Shown in pieces: positions 6,312 to 64,000 of a stretch of DNA of 64,000 nt. How positions within the stretch are numbered: the stretch's first letter is position 1; every line of letters starts with the position of its first letter. The DNA lies in the NCBI GenBank assembly GCA_026419785.1, contig JAODTK010001444.1:124001-188000 (forward strand). Reading direction: 5' to 3'. The position numbers and the translations under genes were made by a program. Source of the stretch: Sclerodactyla briareus. Its lineage: Eukaryota > Echinodermata > Holothuroidea > Dendrochirotida > Sclerodactylidae. The notes under the pieces are model-generated. The model saw nothing but the letters and a program-made list of their open reading frames with translations, had not been told where the DNA came from and did no database searches.

Positions 6312-7258
6312 TGTCCATCGTCGCCCGATGGCATCTTTAGGGTGATTTGCAGTTACCTCGGTTTTGCGAATTCTGGGTTCCCCGCGCGTCTGGCATTGCC
6401 TTCCGTTATTGTATTGTTCGGAATTCCCTGAGGGATTACTTTCATAGATTGCCCACTGGGCATGCAAGTGGTGTCCTCATTGCGTGTATGCTTACACGTT
6501 GGGCGGAAGGATGGGGGAGAGTCAGAGTGTGTGTTACTGTGCGCTGATCAGCGGTTTTGTTGTAGAGAAGAAGTCGCCGCCGCAATCATAGCCGTCCACG
6601 GCTGTAATTCGCAGCCAACCATCCGAATTGATTTTTCTTCGCTGTTAGCCGTTATAATCAGATAATGTACACCCCGTTTAGCTTCCAGTTTAACGTGAAG
6701 TACGTCCACTAGCCCCGCACTACAGTCGTTTACCTCCACTCGTTTTTGTAAGTGTTTATTATCTGTAGTAGTGTATTCTGTCATGCTAGTATAGGGACAC
6801 ACGAGTTGTCTTATGGGCCGGTTCTTGGCCTCGGGCCTACAGACAGGATTGTTTTTTTAGGTTGGCTGGTGACTTGTACAGGCGTTACGGCGGGACGTTA
6901 TGATGGGACTGCAATATATTCACCTTTATTGGATGCAATTTGGTATATGGGTCAGGGTACATATGTCATGAAGTTTGGTGGGCTAGCGTATTCTAGGACA
7001 TATTAATGGTTTATATTAATTAAAGGCATTTAACTTATTAGTGAGTTTTAGTGGCTATCTATATTGAATTGGAAGTTCATGCTATGGATGGCTTGTAATT
7101 TCCCCATGCATTTGTTGCTTATTATATTTGTCGTTTTTTTAACCTTGGACCCCCGGTGTGTTTGACACCACGGTGTGGGAGTGAAGAATAATGAGGTCCA
7201 ACAATACGTACTTGAACCACGGTTTCCCGGTTACTTTCTTCATCGGGCCTGAGGGTCA
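6312..7258 (+). repeat. 5' LTR of the BEL/Pao element
   Basis: It aligns along its whole length with 13056-13988. Shared landmarks are the start TGTC(C)ATCG, the GGAATTCCCTGAGGG segment, TACAGTCGTTTAC, TTGGCTGGT and the terminal CATCGGGCCTGAG. It begins with TG. The end is placed at GGGTCA just before the leader, and both ends are good to a few bases. I did not compute the identity between the two LTRs. Confidence 0.85.
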
Positions 7259-13040: not shown

Positions 13041-13055
13041 CAAGTGGGGGGGGAG
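13041..13055 (+). promoter_or_regulatory. Polypurine tract of the BEL/Pao element
   Basis: A G-rich purine run (AAGTGGGGGGGGAG) lies immediately before the TGTCATCG start of the 3' LTR. This is the standard position for the plus-strand primer of LTR elements. Confidence 0.75.
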
Positions 13056-13988
13056 TGTCATCGGCGCCCGGATGGATCTTTAGTTATTTGCATGTATACC
13101 TCGTTTTGCGCATTTTGGGTTCCCGAGCGGGGCTGGCATGCCTTCCGGTATTGTTCGGAATTCCCTGAGGGAATTAGCTTTATTAGATTGCCACTGGTGC
13201 ATGCAGTGGGTCGTATCTGCGTGTATGCTACACGTAGGGCGGAGACTGGGGGGAGAGTTAGAAGTGGTGCGTACTGTGCGCTGCCTACAGCGGTTGTAGA
13301 GAAGTCCGCCGGGGCCGCCATCATGCCGTCCAAGGCTGTAATTTTTCAGCCAACTCCGACGATGGCTCTTCGATGTTAGCCGTATAATCCAGATAATGTA
13401 CCCCCCCGTTAGCTCCAGTTTACCGCTGAGTATCGTTCCACTAGCCGCACTACAGTCGTTTACTCCACAATCGTTTTGTAAGGGTTATTATTTGTAGTCG
13501 TGTATTCTGTCATGCTAGTTAGGGACGGAGTTGTCTATTGGCCGGTCTGGCATCGGGGGGCCTACCAGAAGGATGTTTTAGGTTGGCTGGTACTTGTTAG
13601 CAGGCGTTACGGCTGGGACGTTATGATTGATTGGGGGGGGGAAAATGCAATTTATATTTCACCTTTATTGGATGAATAATTTGGTCTATGGTTCTAGGGG
13701 TCATATGTCATGAAATTGGTGGGCTAGCGTATTCTAGGACAATATTTAATGGTGTATATTAATTAAAGGCATGTAATTATGTGAATGTTAGGGGCTATAA
13801 CAATTGAATTGGTAGTAATGCTATTGATGCTTGTATTCACCATGCATTGTTCTTAGGATATTTGTAGTTCACCTGAACCGTGGGTGCCACACGGTTGTGA
13901 CGTGAAGAAATATAATGAGGTTCCAAAACGACTTGAACACGGTTTCCCGTTCTCTTAAATTTTTTCTCATCGGGCCTGAGCAGGTTAC
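13056..13988 (+). repeat. 3' LTR of the BEL/Pao element
   Basis: It is a direct repeat of 6312-7258, collinear from TGTCATCGGCGCCC to CATCGGGCCTGAG. The two copies differ by scattered substitutions and many short indels. The right boundary is good to a few bases. Confidence 0.85.
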
Positions 13989-23266: not shown

Positions 23267-24448
23267 GCAACCTGATTATACATCTATTCATTTTGTAGGT
23301 CATGGTATTTTTTTCCTGTTTCAAATCCCGTTTATAATGTATATTTCTTTTTTTCTCCTATGTTCAGATTGTACACATGCCTCACATTGTGACTTGAAAA
23401 CTGCTAGATACACTTATGTATACATATGTAAAAGGGCTTTATTAGGAGGGAACCAACTGTATTATGACCATGCTAGTGAGGTTGCATTTTCAATCAGTCA
23501 AACTGTGGCCCAAACCCAAAGACAATGGTACCCTTTAAAGAACAACAGACCCTTGGCCACTGGCTGTGCCATGCAGTATATGGATAAGTCATATCCTGAA
23601 ACACTGAGTGATCTCAAGGTATATCAAGGTTTTAGGGCTGTGCCAAGCTGCTGTCGCCGGCCGCTACTGGAATCTTTTAGGATTCTGCGCATAACTCTTC
23701 ACTGCTTTTATTTTGATTGATTTAGAACTTGTACACATGCTCAACCTTGTGAATCCTGAGGTTCGAGGTGGGCATACTGCAAATACAGAGTTAGAGTCTG
23801 ATTTACATGAAAATTGTGGGTGGTGACAGAACAGGGTCAATTTTTTGTTAGTTGGGGCTTACCATTAACTTTGAATGGCTTCAAATGAACTCGTGGATGT
23901 GGACTGCTGTGAGTCCTTAATAACTGAAGGTCATCTGAAGGTCACAGCAGGTTAAATTTGCTAATTTTATGCAATTCTTCTAATTTGCTGTATTTTAAAA
24001 AAAAACCAAACTTGGAGAATGTTGAGCAACAAGTTGCTCTGAACAAATGTAGGTCATTTCAAGTTACGGATGCCTATAAATGGACTTGATTTAATTAAAT
24101 GTTCTTCCTCTAGTAATGAGGTCCACAAGTAATGTCCTGCAGGATATCATGTCTATGGTTTTAACCCGCCCTGCACTAGCCTCATTCTACATTGACATAT
24201 CATTGTGACCATAGCCATAATCGATATTGTCACACTAGATGATTTTCCTTATATTGCTATGCAGAACAACGCCGCTGTTGATTTTGCGCCAGTTGTTACC
24301 AGACGACATGCGATCTTATAATCTGTATGTTACCTACCTGCTCCGTCTTTCCAACTGAAACTGCCTCATCGGATGTGGGAACGATGCACCCGCGTACCCA
24401 ACAGAGGATCAGAAACGTGAAGAGGAAAGGACCATGTTGAATTCATTG
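23267..24448. other. Non-coding stretch, no gene seen
   Basis: The plus-strand frame 23337-23720 (127 codons) shows no known domain and no flanking splice evidence. The remainder is AT-rich sequence without recognised features. Confidence 0.5.
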
Positions 24449-25235
24449 CTGTATGGAGAACACAGAACATTACTTGTGTTACAACTGTATTAACATGTAT
24501 GTTGCATGCGGACTTAATACTGTATGGATAAACACAGAACATTACTTGTGTTACAACTGTATTAACATGTATGTTGCATGCTGACTTCATACTGTATGGA
24601 TAAACACAGAACATTACTTGTGTTACAACTGTATTATCATGTATGTTGCATGCTGAATTCATTCTGTATACAGAAACACAGAACATTACTTGGGTTATAA
24701 CTGTATTATCATGTATGTTGCATGCTGAATTCAATCTGTATGGAGAAACACAGAATATTACTTGGGTTATAACTGTATTATCATGTATGTTGCATGCTGA
24801 ATTCATTCTGTATACAGAAACACAGAACATTACTTGGGTTATAACTGTATTATCATGTATGTTGCATGCTGAATTCATTCTGTATGGAGAACACAGAACA
24901 TTACTTGGGTTATAACTGTATTATCATGCTGGATTCTTACTGTATGGAGTAGAACAGAACAGAGTGAACAATACTTGTTTATATTTTGTGTTGTTGTCTA
25001 TTTATTTTCTTTGAACCACCACTATTAAACACAGAGAATTTATTCACTCTTGTTACATGTCATGATGAATTATGCCTGTATGGAGACACACACAAACACT
25101 GTATCATCATGGATAGTCCATTCCAAAGGTTGTTCTGTGTGGACGATTACTACTTTACTTGTCACACCTGTATTATCACTGTATTTACATGTTAATAACT
25201 TCTGCTCTGCATGGAGAAACACAGACCAAAGTAAG
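24449..25235. repeat. 72-bp minisatellite, ~7 good copies plus decayed tail
   Basis: The CTGTATGG/CTGTATAC word that marks each unit recurs at 24449, 24520, 24592, 24664, 24736, 24808, 24880 and 24940 (spacing 71-72 bases, the last 60). Every unit carries AACACAGAACATTACTTG, ACTGTATTA(T/A)CATGTATG and TTGCATGCTGA. Further degenerate units continue to about 25235 (near 25078 and 25201). Because 72 is divisible by three, the repeat reads open on both strands: a 170-codon minus frame at 24366-24878 and a 90-codon plus frame. These are repeat translations with no support as proteins. Alternating TATACAG and TATGGAG variants suggest a two-unit higher-order pattern in the middle. Confidence 0.95.
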
Positions 25236-25927: not shown

Positions 25928-26404
25928 ACTTGTGTGTTACAAATACAACCATGTAGATATAGTTAACATGCTGATTATATTAACCTCGCAATCCTGTTGG
26001 TGTTTGAGATATTATGGTTTTGGGGATATTGTCCACAGCCTCAGCCGCCACCGGAAACGTTAGACGTTGGCACAATAACTGTTAACTTTGACTCTTTATC
26101 AGATTGATCTGAAACTGAAAAAATCTCAGATGGATTCGAAAGTGGAGGTCAAATGGACTAAATGAGGTCCACAAAAGTAATTGTCTGTGGGATATACACG
26201 TTGATGGTTTATCCGCCTGGACATATATTTTGAGAACAATTTTGTAACTTTTCATTCGGATCCCACCTAAAGTTCCATTTGTTACAGGGTTTTCAAAGTA
26301 CACGTTTTATATCGGCTTGTATCATAGGGGACCTGTAGTTCCCCCCTGTGATGTCACAAGGCCAAACTTGCAATAAGTGATTGCACCTTATCATTGCACT
26401 CGGA
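25928..26404. other. Short spacer, no gene
   Basis: AT-rich sequence between two MITEs. The minus frame at 26082-26303 has no domain. Nothing else seen. Confidence 0.5.
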
Positions 26405-26406
26405 TA

Positions 26407-26677
26407 AAGGCGCTTTCACACCGGGCGCGACGCAACGCGGCGGAACGCGATGTGATAAAAAGGTGGCAGGACCTTCACACCGGCGGGCGATGTTTTTAAA
26501 TATCGCTCGCGACACTCGGCGACAAGCGACAAAAAGTTGAAATTATTTCAACTCAAAAAAATTGTGTCGCGCCGCATCGCGTCGCGTGCCGGTATGAAAG
26601 GGCTAACTAATCTTATTGTTTTCAACTTTTTCATCGCGTCCTGTCGCGTCGCGTCGCGCCCTGTGTGAAAGCGCCTT
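26407..26677. mobile_element. 271-bp MITE with ~28-bp TIRs, TA-flanked
   Basis: The left end AAGGCGCTTTCACACCGGG and continuation CGCGACGC match the reverse complement of the right end (AAGGCGCTTTCACACAGGG, CGCGACGC) with one mismatch. TA lies outside both ends (26405-26406 and 26678-26679), fitting a TA target duplication. Inside, a second copy of the terminus (CTTCACACCGGCGGGCGA) and its inverted partner (GTGCCGGTATGAAAG) form a nested inverted repeat, and the element is rich in CGCGTCGCG words. It has no coding capacity. TA duplication suggests a Tc1/mariner-like or similar mobiliser, but the ends do not identify which. Confidence 0.8.
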
Positions 26678-26679
26678 TA

Positions 26680-27581
26680 GCTGAAATTTCATATGGAGTT
26701 TGTTTGGCAGCCAAAATGTAACAAACAGATAGTACTAAAAGTTCACATCCCCATTGTTCTTTAATAATGAAATAGTCATGTGGTTTGAAACCAGGGAATG
26801 GCAACGAACTTGACTGTGTCTACGAAGAAACGGAAAATCTCTCAACAAGAGATCAGTCTGCTGATGAGGAGACTTGGCTGGTATGGACATTTCAAGGCCA
26901 ATGATGAATGGATTATTAGGAGGGGACCGACCTGCAGATCGCTGAACAGCACTCTGACACAGGTTGCACAGGGTCTGGAAGTGGGGGGGGGGGGTTCAGT
27001 CATCAAATGTCCTCCAGCCCCCCCCTCACAAAAAAAAAAAAAAATATTGTCCACAACCTTTAAAGCTCCATTCAGCCGTTGAATTATTCGAGAAAATAAG
27101 CATCAATGATGCCTTTTTGCAAAACTCATATAGAAGAATTTCAGTCAAAATTACAGCACGCAAATCCATTCTAGTTTGGAGACGCATGGTGATCAGCAGT
27201 CTGTGAAAGCGGCCCGCCATAACAAATATATTTGTTTCACCGCCAGGGAATCTATTTTACAGATGGAAAAGGCATTTCCACCAATGATGAGGGATCCCAA
27301 CTTTGGGGAAAGTTAGGCTCTCCATCAGTCAAATGTGGTACTCTGCCAGATGCCTCCACATCCTAATCAGCCCCCCGCCCCCCCATGCCTGCCAAAAAAC
27401 AACAACAAAAACAGATTGACTCTAAAACCATGCTAATAGCAATGTTGAAAGACCACAATAGACTGGCGAGTAGGATTAGGTATTGAGAATTTGAGCCCAG
27501 ATCCTATCCGAAGCTGTATCACAGAGAACGCTCTGTCCGGAGGGTCCCAGGACAGTCACTACAAACTGTCTTCAAACCCAG
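26680..27581. other. Spacer with G, C and A homopolymers
   Basis: No gene. A poly-G run (about 26986-26996), a C-rich piece and a poly-A run (27031-27044) produce several overlapping small frames on both strands. A second C-rich piece lies near 27370-27383. Confidence 0.5.
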
Positions 27582-42339: not shown

Positions 42340-42500
42340 AAAAACCAAAAAGCCAAGAGGCTTAGTGATTCCTTGACTGCCTTGAAGTTTGTTGACCTCG
42401 GATAACCTTTGACCTTGACCCCGAAACTAATAAGGATCCTGTACTCCATTATGGGGGACCCACATACCATGTATGAACTTGATCCACAAAGGGGGGTCGA
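42340..42500 (+). repeat. Solitary relative of part of the 2.49-kb tandem unit
   Basis: AAGCCAAGAGGCTTAGTGATTC and TTGAC match the tandem unit (AAGCCAAAAGGCTTAGTGATTC, TTGAC; for example 57254-57279). CTAATAAGGATCCTGTACTCC then recalls the TCCTGTACTCCTAATAAG segment of the unit. Between them, ACCTTTGACCTTGACCCC echoes the unit's TTTGACCTTTGG/CTGACCCC pieces. The copy is single and diverged. The tandem unit therefore contains, or was built on, a dispersed repeat family present elsewhere in the genome. Confidence 0.65.
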
Positions 42501-43349: not shown

Positions 43350-44757
43350 CTCTAGCACTGCAACTGGGGATTAAATGGCGAAACGGCTATGGAAAGCCGT
43401 GCTGGACAGGAAATACCATTGTTAATGCCTACCAATATATTTCCATTTATGGTAGATATATTCCACTTATAGGTAGCATATATTCACATCCAATGGAAGG
43501 CAGGAAATATGTAGCATTAAATCGGAATGTATGGTAGCATCAAATCGAATATATGCTACCATATATCGATATATGAGACCATATATTCGAATATATGCTA
43601 CCATATATTCGAATATAGGCTACCAATATTCGAATAGATGCTACCATTATTCGAAATTTATGTGCATTAAATCGATATATGCTACCATAATTCTGACGTC
43701 TATTGGCTGTAAATATATGCTTACAATTAAATTAAAAATGCTACCATAAAAAAAAATTTCCGGGAATTTATGGTACCATGATCGCAATATGCTACCATAT
43801 AATCGATTTTGTTTTTTAAATGTACCATAATTCGATTTAATGCTACCATATAGTCGGCCAATGTCAACTTCCTGGAGAAAATATTAACCAATCACTATTG
43901 TCATTTGCTTACCGCCAACCGTAGACAAATTTTTTTCCGCACAAGTTGGTATTTGCTCTCTGCTCTCGATATGTAGCCGATATTATACCTGTCGGAGGGC
44001 GTCGACAAAGCTGTTTCTCCCTCTCACATAATCCAGAACATCATTTAATCGTTCCGTGGCCGGTAAAATGGAAGGAGGACTATGGGAGATTATCACCGTC
44101 ATCTTGAACAGCAGCAGTAGCATATGGCGTTATGAAGGTACGTTAGTACGTACACGTTTCGGACTCAGCGCGGCACTCTATTATACGAGCGTACGAGACA
44201 TCATATTATGGGATACAGCAGGCTTAACAATTTCATATGCGCGCGCAATCCTCGTTAGCCATATTTTTTTTACACAGAATAGACTTATCTACCACAGCCA
44301 AGGAAGGCAGGAAATATATGGTAGCATTAATAGAAATATATGGTACCATAATCGAATATATATGCGTAGCATATATTCGATTTAATTGCTACCATAAATT
44401 CGAATTATATGGTAGCATATATATTCGAAATATTATGTAGGATATCATCGATTTAATGCTACCATAATTTCGAATATATGGTAGCATATATTCGATTAAG
44501 TACCATACATTCGAATATATGATAGCATAAATTCGAATCTGGTAGCATTATATTCGATTTAATGCTACCATAAATTCGATTTAATGCCCATAATTCGATT
44601 TAATGATACCATATATTCCTTGCTTCCCAGTGGCTGTGAATATATGCTGCTACATAAAGGAATATATGCTACCATAAAATGGAATATATGGTAGCATTAA
44701 AAATGGTATTTCTGTCCAGCATGGCTTTCCATATACGGGGGCCGAGTGCAGCTAGAG
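43350..44757. mobile_element. Foldback-type element with nested ATATATGGTAGC palindromes
   Basis: The left arm reads CTATGGAAAGCCGTGCTGG, ACAGGAAATACCATT, AATGC.TACCA, GCATATATTCACA.CCA from 43387. The right arm, reverse-complemented from 44734, reads ATATGGAAAGCCATGCTGG, ACAGAAATACCATT, AATGCTACCA, GCATATATTCACAGCCA. The inverted alignment runs for at least 150 bases, and in decayed form over about 400 bases per arm. Weaker pairing continues out to CTCTAGC (43350) and GCTAGAG (44757). Each arm is itself palindromic: an inner unit starting GGAAGGCAGGAAATAT and ending in its reverse complement occurs at about 43478-43715 and 44294-44637, filled with GAATATATGGTAGCAT in both orientations. The ~430-bp loop (43861-44293) is unique and carries a small frame. 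No target duplication was found. Confidence 0.75.
44056..44134 (+). other. Candidate short exon in the loop of the foldback element
   Basis: Two in-frame methionines (44056 and 44068, the second in an AAAATGG context) open a frame reading MEGGLWEIITVILNSSSS and ending at GAAG|GTACGT, a good splice-donor consensus. It looks like a first coding exon or captured host fragment, but no acceptor or downstream exon is recognisable in the AT-rich right arm. The frame is short enough to be chance. No domain known to me. Confidence 0.2.
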
Positions 44758-49462: not shown

Positions 49463-49580
49463 GTTTTTTCGGCGCGGAAAATCTTTCGAACGTGGCGGGC
49501 GGCGAAGCCACCAAAACCATTATACATTGGGTGATGATATATTTATTCAGGCATATTAATTCTAGGTTACAATGTAAACT

Positions 49581-49720
49581 TCGTTTATTTCAGGAACAAA
49601 CCAAGCGGCGGGTACAAGTTACAACATGATGAAACTCGCACAAATGTACAACAAAATTGGACTAACACACTGTTGTAATAAAATAAAACTTAAACGTTGA
49701 AATAAAACTGTCACTTAATT
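49581..49720 (+). promoter_or_regulatory. Splice-acceptor-like site and AATAAA cluster in the array unit
   Basis: CTTCGTTTATTTCAG|GAAC (CAG at 49591-49593; same word at 52081-52091, 57083-57095 and 59540-59551) has the form of a 3' splice site. About 90-115 bases downstream, two AATAAA-type motifs (around 49676-49690 and 49700-49708) precede a GT-containing stretch, which would fit the end of a transcript. In the consensus, the frame after the acceptor reads NKPSGGYKLQHDETRTNVQ before a stop inside the AATAAA cluster. These are motif-level observations, and no transcript is shown. Confidence 0.3.
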
Positions 49721-49907
49721 TTTCCGTGCACGAGTGCGTGCGAACCAGGAAGCCAAAAGGTAGTGATTCTTTGACTCATTCTGGACAACCTGTGGCCAGG
49801 CACTTAGACAAATAAACAAGATGTACTAGCTAATTATGGGCAACAGACATGTCTGAAAAATTCTGCATCCCATAAAAAAAGACGCTATCTTGATCAAGCA
49901 CTAGTGG

Positions 49908-50165
49908 TCCTGTACTCCTAATAGAAAGCTACACACTGAAATCCAACATCAGAACAAGATTTGGGGACGTTATCAAATTGGCAGGGCTCTTCCAACTTCG
50001 GCCTCTCGCTGTTGATCTCTCACATGGACCCCAAATGATGCCACTAATCTGCTCATGTAGTATCATGAGCTTCATCCATTGATGATGAAGCTGGAAACAA
50101 TAGGGTTCTCTACTAGCCATAAGGAAGCCTACACCCAATTTTCAACTTGATTGGGAGACCAAACC
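49908..50165 (+). repeat. Internal ~190-bp duplication inside the array unit
   Basis: TCCTGTACTCCTAATA(A)GAAAGC, TACACACTGAAATCCAAC and a GACC(A) follow one another near 49908-49955. A related series, TTCTCTACTCCCAATAAGGAAGC, TACACCCAATTTCAACTTGAT and GGACCAA, follows about 190 bases later (50104-50165). The same pair is present in every unit (for example 57410-57470 and 57605-57665). One half resembles the solitary copy at 42340-42500. Confidence 0.7.
50068..50094. other. Unit hairpin A (AGCTTCATC/GATGAAGCT)
   Basis: GAGCTTCATCCATT is followed by the inverted arm GATGAAGCT. In most copies the arms are 9-bp perfect with a 4-5 base loop (52591-52613 and 62529-62551). In this first copy the right arm carries an extra GAT. 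Its retention across copies mostly reflects array homogenisation. Confidence 0.5.
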
Positions 50166-50952
50166 ATTATGGACTATGTGTTGACAAGGTTTTCCAGCTT
50201 TGACCTTGGTTACCTCAGATGACGCTGACCTGAGTCGAGGATTTGAAACAAGAAACGTCATACCAATTTTTTCAAAATTTGCAGAACAGAGGCAGGCGAT
50301 TTACTATGCAACTTAAGAGATCATCGAACACGAAGTCCGGTCGAATCAGATGGAATACCGAGGTGTGCATGATGGGAGGTGATATTACTAACAGAAAAAA
50401 AACCCCCGCAATATCTATATACATATAGAACATCGCCAAGAGACCACTTTTTAGTGACTCCAAATATAGCGACATTGGTCACCCAGAAGTAGCCTAACCT
50501 TGATGAAAGTACATTGCCAAAGCAACGAACAAACCGGGATATGTGAGTGTGAAGGTCATTCAGCTCTAGACAGGAATGAAACATTGAATAATTGACCCTG
50601 ACCTGCTGTTGTACTACACAATGTTTCTTGAGTGTTGAGCTGCTGTTGGGCCTCCACATATTTGTTGCAATTACCGATCAGCAGCGAATACCCCGATACG
50701 GATCCATGAAAGATAATTTGATTGCTATGATTTTATAAGGCCTTCGTGTATGGACGCGTGATATTCATCCACCACAGTATGACATTTTCACGTGATTTAA
50801 TTCATTACACTCATAACTCTGCTCGATTTGCGGTCCCAAGATTTTATAGAGAGTTCCCGCAGGCGATTACGTATTGGTCTCTATGAGATACCATACATTA
50901 ACCAGATAGAAAACCGAATAGTCCAATTAATTAAACATTCGACCAAATGGAT

Positions 50953-50964
50953 CATATAAAATCG
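50953..50964 (+). promoter_or_regulatory. TATA-like motif in the array unit
   Basis: GGATCATATAAAATCGCGGC matches a TATA-box consensus (TATAAAA) in an otherwise mixed context. It is retained at 53440, 55951 and 63395, and as CTATAAAATG at 58424; copy 5 is altered. If it is a promoter, transcription would start about 25-30 bases downstream and cross the hairpin at 51466 and the AATAAA stretch at 51529. This is motif evidence only. Confidence 0.3.
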
Positions 50965-51465
50965 CGGCAGTTTGGTCACGGATAATAATTTCTAGGAGGA
51001 TAATCAAAATCGGATCTTCTTTGAACTAATATGATTTCCCGTTCCTTAACCTAGTTCGCCACGAATTGTCGCATGTCTATATACAGAATACATCTATATA
51101 TCTCGTACCGTAGACCGGATCTGTAACGAAGTCAGTCTGGGAATTTCTGGCAGCTAGCCACGGGCCGGCTCTTTTCGCACATTTTCTGCGACACACAAAT
51201 GTTCGCTACCATATTGGGGCGCCGAAGAGGCGTGTGGACCCCTACGTCTGCTAGATGACGAGGACTCTACCCGATTTACTCTAATACCTAATCCTAATCA
51301 TGATAACAAGGTATTCATATACGACACGAACAATCAATTGTAACCAATTGTGACATGTATAATTTCGCAATAAATAGTAGGGTGATTTGCTATGGAAAGA
51401 CTACAGTCGGTTGATCACAAACGAATTTGAAAAGAGGGTGTGTAACGCTCCAGTCCTTCGTTGGA

Positions 51466-51498
51466 TAGTCGCTATGGTGGTACATTGTATAGCCACTA
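51466..51498. other. Unit hairpin B (10-bp stem, 13-nt loop)
   Basis: TAGTCGCTAT, a 13-base loop GGTGGTACATTGT, then ATAGCCACTA: nine of ten stem positions pair. It is unchanged at 53947-53979, 56467-56499 and 63911-63943, and altered by indels in copies 4 and 5. About 30 bases downstream lies an A-rich AATAAA-containing stretch. The layout (hairpin then A/U-rich stretch) would suit an RNA 3' end, but nothing shows transcription. Confidence 0.5.
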
Positions 51499-51955
51499 CT
51501 AGGGCACAATTTATATCTCCTCGAGAGTCAAATAAAAATAAAAAAATAGGCGAGGGTTGTCACAGCTAAAGTGTCGGCGGAAGTGTGCAGTGGCCAAAAT
51601 CCTAAATGCCGCTGTCGGCCATCTTGAAAATTTCGTTTTAAATAGTGTGCGGGACACCTAGCTTAAAAACATCAGTACTAGGTTTTGGGGGTCGAATTTT
51701 AATATTCCATATCAGTTTTATAATTCAAGTCTCTTTAATATCTAAATCCAAGATGGCCGCCTGTATAACAGTTTCCGATTAGTCGATTTTCAAAGTTCGT
51801 CGTGTTGAGTGTTAAGTGAATGGGTGTTCACCAAATTTAATACTGGAAATGTAGAAGTGCCCCCTCCTCCACCTTAAAAGATGCTCGTCGATTTGATAAC
51901 AACGCCAATTGGGTAATTTATAAAATTTACCGCTTCAGAATGGGCTCAACTGAGA

Positions 51956-54447
51956 GTTTTTCGCGCGGGAAAATCTTTCGAACGTGGCGGCGGCGGCGAA
52001 AGCCAAAACATTATTTACCTCTGGGTGATGATGATATATTTATCAGCAATCTAACTTCTACGGTTACATGTACAACTTCGTTTATTTCAGGAACAAACCA
52101 AGCGGCGGTTACAAGTTACAACATGATTGAAACTCGAAAAATGTAAACACATGGGATAACACACTGTTTTAATAAAAAATAAAACTTAAAACTGTGTAAA
52201 TAAAACTGTCACTACAGTTTTCTGTGCAAGCAAGAGTCGTGCGAAAACCAGAAAGCCGAAAGGTTAGTGATTCTTTGGACTCTTTCTGACAACTGTGGCC
52301 AGTTAACTTATGACAATAACAAGAGTACTATAGCTAATTATTGGGCACACATGACATGTCTGAAAAAATTTCTGGATTTCCCATAAAAAGACGCTCTTGT
52401 AAGCAATAGGGTTCCTGTACTCCTAAATAAGGAAGAGTACACACTGAAATCAAACAATCAGACCACAGATTGTGGGGACGTTATCAAAATTGGCAGGGCT
52501 CTTCCAACTTCGGCCTCTGCTGTTGATTCTCTCCACCTGACCCCAAAATGAGCCACTCATATGCTCAAGTAGTCATTCATAGCTTCATCCATTTGATGAA
52601 GCTGGAAACAATAGGGTTCTCTACTCCCAATAAGGAAGCATAACACCCAATTTCAACTTGATTGGACCACCATATGGCTTATTAGGTGGTTACAAGGTTT
52701 CAGACTTTGACTTTGGTACTAGATGACTCTGACCTTAGTCGAGGATTGAAAAAAGAAGTCATACAAATTCACCAATTCTGAAGAACAGAGGCAGGCGATG
52801 TACGTTGCCACTATAGGCGATCAACGAACACCGAAGTCGGTTCGATCCGAATGAATACCGAGGTGTTGCATCGATGGGAGGTGAGATTTAAAGCAAACAA
52901 AACCCCGCAATTATTCGATATACATATAGACACATCCGCACGCAGACCACTTTCTAAGTGACTCCAACTATCGAACATTGGTCCCATAAGTAGCCTACCT
53001 CTGATGATTTGAAAGTACATTGCCAAAGACAACCTAACAACCCGATATGTGAGTGTGAAGGTCATTCAGCTCTAAGGAAGGACATGAACATTGAATACCT
53101 GGACCTGCTGTTTTACTAAACATGTTTGGGGTTTGAGCTGCGGGGTCTACACATATTTGTGCAATACGACTCCTGCAGGAATACCACACCATACGATCCA
53201 TTGAAATAATTGATGCGTATGATTTTATAAGGCCTTCGTGGTGGACTGCGTGATAGATCCACCACAGTGATTGAACATTTCAGTGTTTAATTCATTACAC
53301 TCAGATATCTGTCGTTTGCGCTCAATATTTTATCGAGGAGTTCGCCGCAGGCGATCGTATTGGTCTCTATGATCGGATACTCCCAATTAACCAGGATAGA
53401 AAACGCCATTAGTTCCAATTAAACCTTACCAAATTGGATCATATAAAATCGCGGCTTCCTCACGTATAAGAATTCTAGGAGGATAATTCAATAAATCCGG
53501 AGGATCTTCTTTTGAACTAATATGTTTCGTTTAAATTAACCTAGTTCGCCACGAATGTGCATTCTATATACAGAATACATATAATATCTGTCCGTAGGCG
53601 ATCTGTAACCGAAGTTCAGTCCTGGGAATTTTCTGGCAGCTAGCCACGGCCGGCTTATTTCGACAAAGTTCTGCGCACAACAAAGGGTCGCTACATAGGG
53701 GCGGCCTAGAAGGCAGGGTGTGGAACCTACTTCTGCATTAGCTGACGAGGACCTACCCGATACTCTATATACCTAATCCTAATAGATAACAATTTAGTCT
53801 ATACGACACGAACAAATCATTGTAACCATGCACTGTGACTGAGGACATGATATTTCGCAATAACTAGTAGGGTGCTTTGCATATGGAAGACTACAGTCGG
53901 TGATCACAAACTGAATTTGAAAAGAGGTAGCTCAGTCTTCGTTGGATAGTCGCTATGGTGGTACATTGTATAGCCACTACTAGACAATTATATATCCTCG
54001 AAAGGTCAAATAAAAATAAAAAATAGGCGAGGGTGCCTCACGCTAAAGTGTGAGCGAAAGTCGTGAGTGGCCAAATCCTAAATGGCCACGCTGTTCGCCC
54101 ATCTTCGAAAATTCGTTTTTTTGTTTTTTTTTAAATAGTTTGCAGCTACACCATAGCTTAATACATCACTAGGTGGTGGGTGTCGAATTTTTAATATTCC
54201 ATATCAGTTTTATACTTTCCAAGTCTCTTAAATCCTCAAATCCAAGATGGCCGCCGATTAACAGTTTCCGATTAGTCGATTTTCAAGTTTCGTTCGTGAG
54301 TGAAGGGAAGGTTTGTTCACCAAATTTAATACTGAAATGTAGAAGTGCCCTCCTCCACTCTTTAAGATGTTCGTCGATTGGATATGACACAACGCACATT
54401 TGGGTAATTTATAAATTACCGCCTCTCCAGAATGGGCTCAACTGAGA
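51956..54447 (+). repeat. Array unit 2 (2492 bp)
   Basis: Full copy. The TATA-like motif (53440) and hairpin B (53947-53979) are intact. The plus frame 51940-52146 at its start (68 codons) has a counterpart only in unit 6. Confidence 0.95.
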
Positions 54448-56960
54448 GTTTTTTCGGCTGCAAAATCTTTCGAACGTGGCGGCCCGGCGAAGCCAAAACC
54501 AATTATACCTCTGGGTGATGATATATTATTCAGCAATCTCTTTACGGGTACAATGTACAAACTCTTTATTTCAGGAACAACACCAAGCGGCGTGAAAGGC
54601 GGTTTGGGTTACAATGTTACAAACATGATGAAACTCGACAAATGTACAACACAGTGGACTAACACCATGTTTTAATAAAAAATAAAACTTAAAGGTTTAA
54701 ATAAAATTGTCACTAATTTGTCAGTGCAGAGTGCGTGCGAACCAGGAAGATAAAAGGCTTTGTGATTCTTTGGACTCATTCCTGACAACTGTGGCCAGTC
54801 ATCACTTATGACAAATAACAAGATTTTGTACTACTAGCTAAATTAGGGCACACATGACATGTCTGAAAAATTTCTGGATGCCCATAAAAAAGACGCTATC
54901 TGATAAGCAATAGGGTTCCTGTACCTCCTAATAAGAAAGTACACACTGAAATCCAACAATCAGACCAAGCATTGTGAGACGTATCAAATTGGCCAGGGTC
55001 TTCAAATTTCGGCCTTCGCTGTTGGTGTTGATATATCACCTGACCCCAAATTGATGCCACTCATCTGACCTCAGTATCATCATGAGCTTCATCCATTGAT
55101 GAAGATGGAAACAATAGGGGTTTATCACGCACAATGAAGGAAGCCATACACCCAATTTCAACTTGATTGGACCAAACATTATGGATTATCGTGTTTTACA
55201 AGGTTTCAGACTTTGACCTTTGGATTACCTAAGATGACCTCTGACCTTCGTCGAGGATTGAAAAAGAACGTCATACAATTCACCCAATGTTCTGAAGAAC
55301 AGAGGCAGGCGATTTACGTCGGCACTCTAAGGCGATCAATTCGAACACCGAAGTCCGGTCGATCAGAAGGAATACCGAGGTGTTGCATGATGGGAGGTGA
55401 TAAAAAAGAAAAAAAACCGCAATATTCTATATACAATAGACACATCCGCAGGGACACTTTTAAGTGACTCAACTTCGGACTTGGTAACCCCATAAGTAGC
55501 CATACCTATGATGAAAGTAACATTGCCCAAAGCAACTAACAACCCGGGATAGTGAGTGTGAAGGTATTCAGCTCTAAGCAGAGACAATGAACATGAATAC
55601 CATGACTGCTGTTTTGAAACAACCACTGTTTGAGTGTTGAGCTGCGTGGGCCTACACATATTTGTGCAATACGACTCCTGCAGGAATACCACACCGATAC
55701 GATCCATTGAAAATTTGATTGCTTATATTTTTATAAAGGCCTTCGTGTATGGACTGCGTGATATTATCCACCACAGTATGACATTTTCACGTGGATTTAA
55801 TTCTTCCACTCATAATCTGTCGTTTTGCGACTCCAATATTTTTATCGAGGTTCGCCGCAGGCGTTTACGTATTGGGCTCTATGAGATACCATACATTAAC
55901 CAGATAGAAACACGCCCATAGTTCCATTAATAACCATTACCAAATTGGATCATATAAAATCGCGGCATTTCCTCAAGTATATAATAATTCTAGGAGGATA
56001 ATCAAAATCGGATCTTCTTTGAACTAATATGATTTCGGTGTATTAACCTAGTTCGCCACGAATGTCGCATTTCTATATACAGAATTACACTATATAATCC
56101 TCCGTACCGTAGAACGGATCTGTAAAGACAGTAGGTCATGGGAATTTTTCTGGCAGCTAGCCACGGGCCGGGCTCTTTTCGACACATGTTATGCGCACAC
56201 AAATGTTCGCTACCATATTGGGGCGCCTCTAGAAGCAGGCGTGTGGACCTACTTCGGCATTAGCTGAAGAGACTCTACCCGATACTCTAATACCTATCCT
56301 AATCATGATAACAATTTATCATATACGACACGAACAATCAATTGTAACCAATTGTGACATGTATAATTTCGCAATAAATAGTAGGGGGATTTGCTATGGA
56401 AAGGACTACAGTCGGTGATCACAAACTGAATGAAAAGAGGGATGGTGGTAGTCAGTCTTCGTTGGATAGTCGCTATGGTGGTACATTGTATAGCCACTAC
56501 TAGATCAATTTATATCTCTTCGAAGGTCAAATAAAAATAAAAAGGACGATGGGTGCCTCACGCTAAAGTGGCGAGGAGGGCGGAGGTCGTAGTGGGCCAA
56601 AATCCTAAATGGGCCCGCTGTCGCCCATCTGAAAATTCGTTTTTAAATAGTTGAGGTACTACAACATAGCTTTTTTTAAACATCACACTAGTTTTGGGGT
56701 CGATTTTTAAGTATTCCATATCAGTTTTATAATTCCAAGTCTCTAAATCTCAAAATCCAAAGATGGCCGCCGATTAACAGTTTCCGATTAGTCGATTTTC
56801 AAAAGTCGTTCGTGATGAAGGAAGGTGTTCACCACTTTAAATACTGAAATGTAGAAGTTGCCCCCTCCTCCACTCTTTAAAGATGTTCGTCGATTTGGAT
56901 AACAACGCCATTTGGGTAATTTATTAAATTTACCGCCTCGCAGAATGGGCTCAACTGAGA
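54448..56960 (+). repeat. Array unit 3 (2513 bp)
   Basis: Full copy and the longest one. Extra bases include a short duplication-like insertion at about 54591-54612. The TATA-like motif (55951) and hairpin B (56467-56499) are intact. Confidence 0.95.
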
Positions 56961-59419
56961 GTTTTTTCGGCGCGAAGAATCTTTCGAACGTGGCGGCGGC
57001 GAAGCCAAAAAAACCAATTATACCTCTGGGTGATGATATATATTATTCAGCAATCTAACTTCTTACGGTTACAATGTACAACTTCGTTCATTTCAGGAAC
57101 AAACCAAGCGGCGGTTACAAGTTACAACATGATGAAACTCGCACAAATGTACACCACATTGGCTAACACACTGTTTAATAAAAAAATAAACTTAAAAACT
57201 GTTTAATAAAACGTCCCTAATTTTCGTTGCGAAGCGTGCGTGCGAAACCAGGAAGCCCCAAAAGGCTTAGTGATTCTTTGGACTCATTCCTGACAACATG
57301 TGGCCGTTCACTTATGACAAATAACAAGATGTAATAGCTAATTAGGGCACCACATGACAGTCTGAAAATTTCTGGATTCCCATAAAAAAGACGTATCTGA
57401 TTCAAGCAATAGGGTTCCTGTTACTCCTAATAAGAAAGCTACACACTGAAATCCAACAATCGACCAAGCATTGTGACGTTATCAAATTTGCAGGGCTCTT
57501 CCAACTTCGGCCTCTCCTGTTGATCTCTCACCTGACCCCAAATGATGACACTCATCTTCATGTAGTCATCATTGAGGTTCATCCATTGCTGAAGCTGGAA
57601 ACAATGGGTTTCCTACTCCCAATAAGGAAGCCATACACCCAATTTCAACTTGGTGGACCAACCATAGACTGATCGTGTTTACAAGGTTTTCAGACTGACC
57701 TTTGGTTACATCAGATGACGCTGACCTTCGTCGAGGATGAAAAGAACGTATACAATTCACAATTCTGAAGAACAGAGGCAGGCGATTTACGTCTGCACTT
57801 AAGCGACAATCGAACACCGAAAAGTCCGGTCGATCAGAATGGAATACCGAGGTGTTGAATGCTGGGAGTGATTATAAAGAAAAAAAAACCCCGCAATATT
57901 CTATATACATATAGACACATCCGCACGCAGACCACTTTCTAAGTGACTCCAACTATCGGACATTGGTAACCCATAAGTAGCCTACTTGTGAAAGTACATT
58001 GACAAAGCAAATACACAGGGATATGTGCGTGTTAAGGTCATTCAGCTTCTAAGGCAGGTGAACATTTTTGAATTACCCTGACCTGCTGTTTAATACACCA
58101 TGTTTGAGTGTTTGAGCTGCGTGGGCCTACACAGATTTGGCAATACGACTCCATGCAGGAGGAATACCACACCGATAAGATCATTGAAATAATTGATTTC
58201 TATGATTTTTATAAGGGCCTCGGTATGACTGACGTGAAGTATGCCACAGTATGACATTTTCACGTGATACTTCATTACACTCTCATATCTGTCACGTTTG
58301 CGCCTCCAATATTTTATCGAGGAGTTCGCGCATGCGATTACGTATTGTCTCTATGAGATTAACCAACATTACCCAGATGAGGAAAAAGCATAGTTCCAAT
58401 GATAACCCATTACCAAATTGGATCTATAAAATGCGGCATTTCCTCCGATATAAGTTCTAGAGGAGGATAATCAAAATCGGATCTTCTTTGAACTAATATG
58501 ATTTCGTTTATAACCTAGTTCGCCCGAAGTCGCATTTCTATATACAGAATACTCTATATATCTCGTTACCGTTAGACCGATCTGTAACGAAGTTCAGTTC
58601 CTGAGAATTTCTGGCAGTAAGCCACGGGCCGATTCTTTTCGACACCCATGTTTGCGCACACAAATGTTCGCTACCATATTGGGGCGGCCTAGAAGAAGGC
58701 GTGTGGACTACTTCTGCAATTAGTGACGAGACTCTACCCGATACTCTAATACCTAATCCTAATATGATAACACATTATTAATACGACACGAACAATCAAT
58801 TGTAACCAATTGTGACATGTATAATTTCGCAATAAATAGGGTGATTTGCAATGGAAAGGACTACAGTCGGGTGATTCACAACTGAATTTGAAAGAGGTAG
58901 TTTTAGCTCAGTCCTTCGTGGATAGTCGCTATGGTGGACATTTGTATACCATTTCACTAGACAGTATATCTCCTCGAAGGTCAAATAAAAATAAAACATA
59001 GGGCGAGGGTGCCTCCACGTAAAGTTTCGGCGGAAGTCGTGAGGGCCAAAATTCCGAAATGGCGCTGTGTCGCCCACTTGACAAATTCGTTTTTTAAAAT
59101 AGTTTGAGGTATTCTACACCATAGCTTAAAAAAATCATCACTAGGTTTGGGGGTTCGAATTTTTAATATTTCCATATCCGAGTTGTATAAATTCCAAGTC
59201 TTTAATATCTCCAATCCAAGATGGCCGCGCTTAACAGTTTACGATTAGTCGATTTTTCAAGTTCGTCGTGAGTGAAGTGAAGGGTGTTCACAATTAATAC
59301 TGGAAATGTAGAAGTGCCCCCTCCTCCACTCGTTAAAGGTTCGTCGATTTGATTAACACAACGCACATTTGAGGTTAATTTATAAATTTAACCGCCTATC
59401 CAGATGGGCGCAACTGAGA
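56961..59419 (+). repeat. Array unit 4 (2459 bp)
   Basis: Full copy and the shortest one. The TATA-like motif is altered to CTATAAAATG, and hairpin B is disrupted by small indels around 58923-58957. Confidence 0.95.
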
Positions 59420-61906
59420 GTTTTCGGCTGCGAAAATCTTCTCGAAACGTGCGGCCGGCGAAGCCAAAACCATAGACCTCGGTTGATTGATATATTTATT
59501 CAGCAATCAAAACTTCTACGGTTTACAATGTTACAACTTCGTTATTTCAGGAACCAAACCAAGCGGGGCGGGTTACAAGTTATACAACATGATGCAAACT
59601 CGCACAATGTACAAATTGGACTACACACTGTTTTAATAAAAAATAAAACTTAAACTGTTTAAATAAAACTGTCACTAATTTTTCCGTTGCAGCAAGAGTT
59701 TGCGTGCGAAAACCAGGAAGCCAAAAGGCTTAGTGATTCTTTGACTCATTATGACACCTGTGGCCAGTCACTTATGACAAATATACAAGATGTCCGAGCT
59801 AATTATGGGCACACATGACATGTCTGAAAAATTTTGGATACCATAAAAAAGACGCTATCTGATCAAGGCAATAGGGTTCTGTACTACTAAGAAGAAAGGC
59901 TACACACTGAAATCCAACAATCAGACCAAGCATTGTGGCGTTATCAAATTGGCAGGGCTCTTCCAACTTCGCCCTCTCGCTGTTGATCTTCACCTGACCA
60001 AATGATGCCACTCATCTGCTCATGTAGTCATCATGAGATTCATCCATTTGATGAGCTGAATACAATATGGTTCCTGTTCTTTTTTTTACTCCAATAAGGA
60101 AGCATTACACCCAATTTCAACTGGTGAACCAACCGTAATGGACTTATCGTGTTTACAAGGTTTCAGACTTGACCTTTGGTTACCTCAGATGACCTTGACC
60201 TCGTCGAGGATTTGAAAAGAACGTCATACAATTCACATTCTGAGAACAGAGGCAGGCGATTTACGTCTTGCACTCTAAGGCGATCAATCGAACACCGAAG
60301 TCCGGTCGACTGAATGGAATACCGAGGTGTGCATGATGGACGGTGATTGATAAAGAAAAAAAAACCCGCAATATTCTATATACATAGGAGAAACAGCCGC
60401 ACGCAGACCATTTCTAAGTGATCCAACTATCGGACATTGGTAACCCATAAGTAGCCTACCTGATGAAAGTACATGCCAAAGCAAATAACAACCAGGGAAA
60501 ATATGTGAGTGTGAAGGTCATCGCTCAAGGCAGGAATGAATCATTGAATACCCTGACCTGCTGTTTACTACACAAGTGTGAGTGTTTGAGCTGCGTGGGC
60601 CTTACCATATTTGTTGCAATAGACTCCTGCGTAGGAATTACCACACCGATTAGTCATTGAAATAATTGATTGACTAATGATTTTATACGGCCTTTCGTGT
60701 CATGCGACTGCGTGATATTATACCACAGTATGGACATTTTCACGTGATTTAATTCATTACACTCATATATCTGTCGTTTGCGCTCCAATATTTTTATCGA
60801 CGAGTTCGCGCAGGCGATTACGTATGGCGTCTCTATGAGATACCATGAACCATTAACCAGATAGAAACACGCATAGTTCCAATTAATAACCATTACAAAT
60901 TGGATCATAAAAATCGCCGGCATTTCCTCACGTATAATAATTTCTAGAGGATAATCAAAATCGGATCTTCTTTGAACTAATATGATTTCGTTGATTAACA
61001 TAGTTTCGCCACGAAGGTCGCATTCTATATACAGAAATACATCTATATATCTTCGTACCGTAGACCGGACTTACGAAGTTAAGTCCTGGAATTTCTGGAA
61101 GCTAGCCACGGGCCGGCTTCTTTTAGACACATGTTCTGCCACACAAATGTTCGCTACCATAATTGGGGCGGCCTAGAAGGAGGCGTGTGGACCTACTTCT
61201 TGCATTAGCTGACGAGACTCTACCGGATACTCTAATACCTAATCCTAATCATGATAACAATTTATTCATATACGACACGAACAATCAATTGTAACCAATT
61301 GTGACATGTATAATTTCGCAATAAATAGTGGGAGGATTTGCATATGGAAAGACGACCGTGGTGATCAACAAACTGAAGTAAACAGAGGGTAGCTCAGTCC
61401 TTCGTTGGATTAGTCGCTTTGGTGTAACATTGTATAGCCACTACTAGACAATTTATATCTCCTCGAAGGTCAAATAAAAATAAAAAAAATAGGGCGAGGG
61501 TGCCTCCGCTCAAGTGTCGGCGGAGGAACAAAGTAGTGAGTGGCCAAAATCCTAAATGGCAGCTGTCGCCCATCTTGAAAATTTCGTTTTAATGTTTTGA
61601 GGTTTATTACACCCATAGCTTAAAAACATTCACCCTAGGTTTTGGGGGTCGAATTATTAAATTTCCATACAGTTTTATAATTCCAAGTCTCTTAATATCA
61701 AATCCAAGAGGCCGCGATTATTAACAGTTTCCGATTAGTTCGATTTTCAAGTTGTCGTGAGTGAAAGTGAAGGGTGTTCACCAAATTTAATTACTGAAAT
61801 GTAGAAGTGCCCCCTCCTCCAATCTTTAAAGATGCTAGTCGATTGATAACAAGCACATTGGGTGAATTTATAAATTTACAGCATCTCTAGAATGGGTCAA
61901 CTGAGA
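59420..61906 (+). repeat. Array unit 5 (2487 bp)
   Basis: Full copy with a T-run insertion at about 60080-60088. The TATA-like motif and hairpin B are altered by small indels. Confidence 0.95.
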
Positions 61907-64000
61907 GTTTTTTCGGCGCGAAATCTTTCGAACGTGGGCGGCGGCGAAGCCAAAACCATTATACCTCTGGGTGATGATAATTTATTCAGCAATCTAACTT
62001 CTACGGTTACAATGTACAATTCGGTTATTCAGGAAACAACCAAGCGGCGGTGTTACAAGTTACAACATGATGAAACTCGCACAAATGTACAACACACATG
62101 GAATAACACACTGTTTTAATAAAAAATAAAACTTAAAAAACTGATTTAAATAAACTGTCACTAATTTTTCCGTGCAAGAGTGCGTGCGAAACCAGGAAGC
62201 CAAAAGGTTAGTGATTCTTTGACTCCATTTCTGACAACCTGTGGCCAGTCTTATGACAAATAACAAGAGGTATAGCTAATATGGGCAACATGACAGTCTG
62301 AAAATTTCTGGATTCCCATAAAAAAAGACGCTATCTTGATTCAAGCAAAATAGGGTTCTTCCTGTACTCCTAATAAGGAAAGCTCAACACACGGAAATAC
62401 AACAATCAGACACAAGCATGTGGACGTTATTCATTTGAAGGCTCTTCCAAACTTCGGCCTCTCGCTGTTGATCTCTCACCTGACCCCCAACAATGGGGTT
62501 CATGTAGTACTCATTATGAAAAGTTTGAGCTTCATCCATTTGATGAAGCTGGAAACAATAGGGTTTCTTCTCTCCAATAAGGCAGCTACCCCAACTTTAA
62601 CTTGATCGAACCAACTATTTGGGACTTATCGTGTTTACAGGTTTCGACTTTGCCCTTTTGGTACCTCAGATGAACTCTGACCTCGTCGAGGATTGAAAAA
62701 AGAAACGTCCATACAATCACAATTCTGACAGAAACAGGAGGCAGGCGATTGAGGTCTGCACGATAAGGCGATCAATCGAACACGAAGTACGGTCGATAAG
62801 AATGGAATAACCGAGGTGTGCATGATGCGGAGTGATAATATAAAGAAAAAAAACCCGCAATATTCTATATATACATATAGACACATCCGCACGCAGACCA
62901 CTTTCTAAGTGACTCCAACTATCGGGGACATGGTCACCCATAAGTTAAGCCTACCATCTGATGAAAGTAACATTGCCAAAAGCAATCTAACAACCCGCGG
63001 GCTTATGTGAGTGTGAAGTCATTCAGCCTCTAAGGCAGGAATGAACATTGATTACCTGACTGCTGTTTTCTACACCAATGTTGGAGTGTTTGAGCTGCGT
63101 GGGCCCTACACATATTGTGCAAATAAGAACGCCTGCGGGAAACCACACCGATACGATCATTGAATAATTGATTGCTTGATTTATTAAGGCCTTCGTGTAT
63201 GGACTGCGTGATTGACACCACAGATGACATTTTCAGTGATTTATTCATTACACTCATTATCTTGTAGTTTGCGCTCCAAATATTTTTAGCGAGAGTTCGC
63301 CGCAGGCGATTACTATTGGTTCTCTAGAGATACCATACATTAACCAGATAGAAACACGCATAGTTCCAATTAATAACCTATTACCAATTGGAATCATATA
63401 AAATCGCGGCATTTCCTCACGTATTACTAATTTATAGGAGGATAATCAAAATCGGATCTTCTTTGAACTAATATGATGTCGTTTAGTAACCGAGTTCGCC
63501 ACGAATGTCGCATTCTATATACAGAATACATCTATATATCTCGTACCGTAGACCGGATCTGTAACGAAGTTCAGTCCTGGGAATTTTCTGGCAGCTAGCC
63601 ACGGGCCGGCTTCTTTTCGACACATGTTCTCGCAACAAAAAAAACAAATTCGCTACCATATTGGGGCGGCCTAGAAGCAGGCGTGTGGACCTACTTCTGC
63701 ATTAGCTGACGAGACTCTACCCGATACTCTAATACCTAATCCTAATCATGATAACAATTTATTCATATATGCACAAACAATTCAAAATTGTAACGCAATT
63801 GTGACATGTATAATTTCGCAATAAATAGTAGGGTGATTTGGCATATGGAAAGACTACAGTCGGTGATCACAAACTGAATTTGAAAAGAGGTAGCTCAGTC
63901 CTTCGTTGGATAGTCGCTATGGTGGTACATTGTATAGCCACTACTAGACAATTTATATCTCCTCGAGGCTCAAATAAAAATAAAAAATAGGCGAGGGTGC
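61907..64000 (+). repeat. Array unit 6, truncated by the window edge
   Basis: At least 2094 bases, ending within the A-rich AATAAA stretch after hairpin B (63911-63943, intact). An A-rich insertion is present near 63636-63646. The array therefore continues beyond the window. Confidence 0.95.

What the first reader, a model, noticed from the sequence alone, without database searches (positions are those of the whole stretch)
49463..64000. Macrosatellite of ~2.49-kb units with gene-like internal organisation
Seen: six anchors spaced 2459-2513 bases apart, with near-identical copies. A unit this long, with a TATA-like motif, two hairpins, an acceptor-like site and AATAAA clusters in ordered positions, is unlike a simple satellite. 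It could be a macrosatellite, a non-coding RNA gene array or a decayed spliced gene array. I do not recognise it as 5S rRNA, a spliceosomal snRNA, a histone cluster or rDNA.
Basis: partly seen in the sequence, partly recalled or inferred. Interest (0 to 1): 0.78.

Follow-up and report, generated by a model that had tools for sequence, protein, structure and literature searches.

The report
Non-coding tandem repeat, unpolished sequence
A stretch of about 2.45-kb apparently non-coding DNA is repeated head to tail at least six times, and the differences between copies look mostly like sequencing errors, so this is most likely an ordinary long satellite in an imperfectly corrected assembly.

Summary
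The array is real in the sequence: five full head-to-tail units (2459-2513 letters) and a sixth cut off by the window end, 49463-64000. Raw copies are 80.5-82.6% identical to the first. The differences are mostly singletons and indel-rich; 13% of substitutions are transitions and 65% are A<->C or G<->T under the gap-tolerant scoring. Published raw PacBio reads show that kind of profile (PMC7671305, passages). So the underlying units are probably nearly identical (about 1-2% substitutions or less, inferred) and this stretch unpolished. An LTR-like pair in the same window shows the same signature. The consensus has no ORF above chance; 10 ORF pieces gave no Pfam match; Rfam gave nothing at gathering score; no tRNA was found. 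CpG observed/expected is 0.96 against an upstream mean of 0.62, partly a regional trend. Best reading: a homogenised, non-coding long-unit satellite. Ordinary.

The parts
49463..51954 (+). unit 1 (2492 letters); left edge of the array, abrupt change from unlike flank just before TTTTTTCGGCG
   Evidence: self-BLAST; unit alignment; sequence read
51955..54446 (+). unit 2 (2492)
54447..56959 (+). unit 3 (2513)
56960..59418 (+). unit 4 (2459)
59419..61905 (+). unit 5 (2487)
61906..64000 (+). unit 6, cut off by the window end (2095 letters)
49677..49706 (+). A-rich stretch with clustered AATAAA in unit 1; the consensus has AATAAA at positions 213, 220 and 240
   Evidence: sequence; consensus
50068..50092 (+). 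place of the best perfect hairpin of the consensus (AGCTTCATCCATTTGATGAAGCT, 9-bp stem); copy 1 differs from it by extra or missing letters
   Evidence: stem length is at the shuffles' 95% point
51477..51502 (+). short hairpin-like motif, identical 26 letters at four places of the array (51477, 53958, 56478, 63922)
51750..51759 (+). AAGATGGCCG motif (YY1-like, a recalled label), identical at 51750, 54244, 56760 and 59218
   Evidence: motif count reaches but does not exceed the shuffles' 95% point

Best explanation
A homogenised non-coding long-unit satellite (macrosatellite type, unit about 2.45 kb, at least 5.8 copies and open to the right) in an unidentified, probably eukaryotic genome. Shown: head-to-tail order, read-error-like variation between copies, no coding or known RNA content found by the searches made. 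Inferred: the units are kept alike by unequal crossing-over and gene conversion, as in other satellites, and are passive DNA rather than genes. Because reads cannot be placed uniquely in near-identical units, this stretch was probably left close to raw PacBio quality, which makes the copies look 18-20% diverged.
For: Array geometry. Rates against the six-copy consensus: insertions 4.94%, deletions 3.34%, substitutions 2.39%. Singletons are 1148 of 1268 variants and 391 of 421 substitution variants under the second scoring scheme. All 15 unit pairs are about equally similar, 72.5-76.7%. Transitions are 45 of 342 substitutions and A<->C plus G<->T 221 of 342 under the first scheme; under the second 86 and 254 of 457; under the most gap-averse scheme 171 and 367 of 754. 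Uniform random errors realigned under the second scheme gave 35% transitions and 185 of 568 A<->C plus G<->T. PMC7671305 passages: raw PacBio reads have about 13% error, insertions above deletions above substitutions, and raised A<->C and G<->T; ONT reads instead have raised transitions. The LTR-like pair in the same window shows the same spectrum, 11 transitions of 62 substitutions and 93 gap events, A<->C plus G<->T 40 of 62 in the same scheme. The 72-bp tandem array at 24433-24928 has few indels: 23 substitutions and 2 indels in 6 units. No ORF above chance, no Pfam match in 10 pieces, no Rfam at gathering score.
Against: Insertion rate (4.5-4.9%) is lower and substitution rate (2.4-3.3%) higher than the raw PacBio averages in PMC7671305 (8.0% and 1.7%), so partial correction or some real divergence is mixed in. 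The same substitution in two or more copies occurs at 30 sites against about 12 expected for independent errors, and 22 variants of any kind are shared by three or four copies, so some real variants or consensus errors exist. The bias weakens under gap-averse scoring. The 72-bp control also has few transitions (7 of 23). Copy number, reads and organism are not available; homogenisation is inferred.
Confidence: 0.8

Rival explanations
1. Anciently diverged satellite or decayed gene array: copies have really drifted apart by about 10% each from a common ancestor.
For: Raw identity of only 80.5-82.6%; 30 substitution sites shared by two or more copies against about 12 expected.
Against: Indels outnumber substitutions (707+478 against 342). 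Transitions are only 13% (25 A<->G, 20 C<->T of 342) under the first scheme and 23% (171 of 754) under the most gap-averse, where neutral divergence usually has a transition excess (general knowledge). Pairwise similarity is even. An unrelated repeat in the window has the same signature.
Confidence: 0.07
2. Array of non-coding RNA or short-ORF genes, one per unit, transcribed from a unit promoter.
For: AATAAA cluster (3 in 40 bp, above all 200 shuffles), TATA-like sites, and CpG observed/expected of 0.96 in the consensus against an upstream mean of 0.62, which could mark unmethylated, active DNA.
Against: No Rfam match at gathering score (only two chance-level hits), although many structured RNAs should survive about 10% noise in six copies (inference, not tested). 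No tRNA. Longest consensus ORF 115 aa against a shuffle median of 95 and 95% point of 134. TATA-like and hairpin counts at chance. High CpG is partly regional: windows starting at 45.3 and 46.6 kb already show 0.82.
Confidence: 0.07
3. Copy number is an assembly or library artefact (for example a concatemer of a small circle, or repeated passes over one molecule).
For: Each copy carries its own errors, as repeated passes would give; the array begins abruptly beside unlike flank.
Against: All copies are on the same strand with no inverted copies in the self-BLAST, whereas repeated passes over a SMRTbell molecule alternate strands (general knowledge); the array is joined to flank in the sequence.
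Confidence: 0.06

Closest known systems
Macrosatellites such as human DXZ4 (3-kb units; title and abstract start of PMC3218863 seen in the listing) and D4Z4
   Same: Kilobase-scale units head to tail; for DXZ4 also 'not obviously protein coding' (abstract wording).
   Different: No CTCF-core match in the consensus (two recalled regexes), whereas CTCF binding is described for DXZ4 (title). No DUX4-like ORF was seen (D4Z4's ORF is recalled; no direct comparison). Copy number here is unknown; no sequence comparison with these arrays was made.
Long-unit satellite DNAs in general (review PMC8122249, abstract start seen in the listing)
   Same: Non-coding tandem repeat, probably homogenised.
   Different: Unit of 2.45 kb is far longer than the nucleosome-length or 5-10-bp units that the review's abstract calls most common.
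rDNA, 5S, snRNA, tRNA and histone gene arrays
   Same: Tandem units of kilobase scale.
   Different: No Rfam match at gathering score, no tRNA, no Pfam match in the 10 ORF pieces scanned of 58.

Membership tests
macrosatellite / long-unit satellite DNA | kilobase-scale units repeated head to tail | tested here: met
   five full units and one cut-off unit, same strand
macrosatellite / long-unit satellite DNA | high similarity among units (homogenisation) | tested here: inconclusive
   raw 80.5-82.6% to unit 1; the differences have a read-error signature; true identity needs accurate reads
macrosatellite / long-unit satellite DNA | many copies, variable in number between individuals | not testable with these tools
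   window ends inside unit 6; no genome is held for the window
DXZ4-type macrosatellite | CTCF site in each unit | tested here: not met
   0 matches of two CTCF-core regexes (recalled motif) in the consensus
structured non-coding RNA gene array | match to a known RNA family in each unit | tested here: not met
   0 matches at gathering score in 64 kb; two hits at E 1.3 and 3.1, each in a single copy, in E-value mode; novel RNAs are not excluded
protein-coding or decayed gene array | ORF or protein domain in the unit | tested here: not met
   consensus ORF of 115 aa lies within the shuffle range; 0 Pfam matches for 10 of 58 listed ORF pieces; spliced short exons are not excluded
read-error stretch of a PacBio assembly | indel-rich singleton errors with raised A<->C and G<->T | tested here: met
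   against PMC7671305 passages; insertion and substitution rates do not match the published averages exactly

The most novel reading that the evidence does not exclude
The array is an actively used, CpG-retaining (germline-unmethylated) macrosatellite whose units each make a non-coding transcript ending at the AATAAA cluster, in a lineage where such an array has not been recognised.
Probability: 0.06. Interest if true: 0.5.

Novelty: new member of a known kind. Interest (0 to 1): 0.15.

Why it matters
Mainly a caution. Apparent divergence and indels between these units are most likely read errors, so a reading of 'decay' or of evolving unit variants would be unsafe, and frames in other long repeats of this window may be broken for the same reason. 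The satellite itself may be useful as a chromosome marker once accurate reads exist.

Tried and rejected
Searches for relatives gave nothing useful. Plasmid and phage collections with raw unit 1 (one of six): no match. An exact 26-mer in viral contigs and in bacterial/archaeal genome contigs: none. An 18-mer in viral contigs: 3 contigs, whose similarities to the consensus are that 18-20-bp match in each plus one 21-bp 90% match in L002; by my rough estimate (collection size recalled) about chance. The collections on hand offer no eukaryote genomes. Consensus against the upstream 49,462 bases: one 36-bp 86% match at 42343-42378 (E 2e-4) and two marginal matches (E 0.40), each listed twice because the query wraps round.

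Organism: not identified. Pfam scan of 20 of the 49 upstream stop-to-stop ORFs of at least 95 aa (two more of the 49 were among the pieces) gave one sub-threshold hit (Pterin_4a, E 0.01, 16.4 bits against a cut-off of 26).

Insulator-type motifs: CTCF-like none. YY1-like pattern with AA-ATGGC-G occurs 2 times against a shuffle mean of 0.21 (95% point 2), and AANATGG 3 times against 2.13 (95% point 5); not pursued. Paper searches on read errors, macrosatellites and polishing of repeats: only PMC7671305 was opened, by passages; the rest are listings. None listed was recognised as describing this unit, and without an organism I do not claim that it is unpublished.

Full report
What is there. Self-comparison of the window shows a head-to-tail array from about 49463 to the window end: five full units of 2492, 2492, 2513, 2459 and 2487 letters and a sixth cut off after 2095. 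All copies found lie on the + strand. The tandem-repeat finder lists no array here; its longest period is 500.

The copies are not near-identical as written. BLASTN identity to the first unit region is 80.5-82.6%, and the 15 unit pairs agree in 72.5-76.7% of alignment columns. Such evenness is a star rather than a tree. Against a six-copy consensus of 2451 letters the copies carry 4.94% insertions, 3.34% deletions and 2.39% substitutions. Under a second scoring scheme 1148 of 1268 variants, and 391 of 421 substitution variants, occur in one copy only. Under the first scheme transitions are 45 of 342 substitutions (13%) and A<->C plus G<->T 221 of 342 (65%). Under the second they are 86 and 254 of 457 (19% and 56%), and under the most gap-averse scheme 171 and 367 of 754 (23% and 49%). 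Uniform random errors realigned under the second scheme gave 35% transitions and 185 of 568 (33%) A<->C plus G<->T; errors simulated with two thirds transitions gave 60% transitions. Differences are spread along the unit, 41-85 per 100 consensus bases summed over the copies in the 24 full bins (the cut-off unit does not cover the last bins).

That is the kind of profile reported for raw PacBio reads. PMC7671305 (passages read) gives about 13% total error, insertions above deletions above substitutions, and raised A<->C and G<->T for PacBio, against raised transitions for ONT. The fit is not perfect: insertions are lower (4.5-4.9 against 8.0%) and substitutions higher (2.4-3.3 against 1.7%), so some correction or some true divergence is mixed in. 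Substitutions shared by at least two copies occur at 30 sites against about 12 expected, and 22 variants of any kind, mostly indels, are shared by three or four copies (most listed). These may be real variants, alignment ambiguity or errors of the consensus. If true divergence has at least half transitions (general knowledge), the 45-88 transitions of the first four schemes in about 14.3 kb bound it at roughly 0.6-1.2%, and the 171 of the gap-averse scheme at 2.4%; this is an inference.

Controls in the same window. A pair of direct repeats about 930 bp long, 6.7 kb apart (6316-7253 and 13059-13980), has 93 gap events, 65 of them single-base, and 62 substitutions with only 11 transitions; A<->C plus G<->T make 40 of 62 there, and 36 of 52 under the first scheme. 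By contrast, six units of the 72-bp array at 24433-24928 show 23 substitutions (7 transitions) and only 2 indels, and 8 of 15 variants are shared between units. Four smaller repeat pairs were also examined. Indels are frequent in three of them (15, 24 and 26 gap events in 179, 241 and 318 columns), but transitions are rare in only one of the three (43388-43691 pair: 6 of 26; the others 11 of 20 and 6 of 15). The fourth, a 48-bp pair, has 5 substitutions (4 transitions) and no gaps. So the read-error signature is clear in the array and in the LTR-like pair, and not established elsewhere. Failed polishing where reads cannot be placed uniquely is the likely reason (inference).

Is there a gene in the unit? 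The longest consensus ORF is 115 aa; 200 mononucleotide shuffles give a median longest ORF of 95 and a 95% point of 134. Ten of the 58 listed ORF pieces gave no Pfam match at E up to 0.1. Rfam gave nothing at gathering score in the whole window, and two hits, at E 1.3 and 3.1, each in a single copy, in E-value mode. ARAGORN found no tRNA in the window or the consensus. The TATA-like count and the hairpins are at chance; the AATAAA cluster exceeds all 200 dinucleotide shuffles but lies in an A-rich stretch. Motifs in fixed order across copies are a trivial result of copying.

What stands out a little is CpG. The consensus has observed/expected 0.96, while 39 overlapping upstream windows of 2450 bases average 0.62 (s.d. 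0.18; 2 of 39 at 0.9 or more). The contrast is partly regional: the windows starting at 45.3 and 46.6 kb show 0.82, the one starting at 47.8 kb, which runs into the array, 0.88, and those starting at 42.9 and 44.1 kb 1.07 and 1.05. It may mean lack of germline methylation or recent amplification; neither was testable.

Verdict. The most likely reading is an ordinary long-unit, non-coding satellite kept homogeneous by recombination, seen through unpolished sequence. The organism is unknown (no genome held), so novelty of the exact sequence cannot be judged; the kind is known.

Noticed in passing
6316-7253 and 13059-13980: Direct repeats of about 930 bp flanking about 5.8 kb, with a G-rich stretch just before the right copy (about 13042-13055) and strong positive GC skew at 8-14 kb: looks like an LTR retroelement whose end repeats differ by read-error-like changes; 10 of 48 listed ORF pieces, searched apart, gave no Pfam match.
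   Followed up: partly
24433-24928: 72-bp tandem array, 6.9 copies, with hardly any indels.
   Followed up: partly
43388-44733: Interleaved direct and inverted repeats of a 21-22-bp motif (TATATGGTAGCAT / ATGCTACCATA type) in a large palindromic arrangement.
   Followed up: partly
26400-26684: 53-nt inverted repeats, 87% complementary, 179 nt apart, with GC-rich arms: MITE-like.
   Followed up: no
2013-2083: Run of 71 bases that is almost all G.
   Followed up: no
42876-64000: CpG observed/expected is 0.82-1.07 from about 43 kb to the window end, against about 0.6 on average before.
   Followed up: partly
42343-42378: 36-bp stretch 86% identical to positions 281-315 of the array unit consensus.
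   Followed up: no
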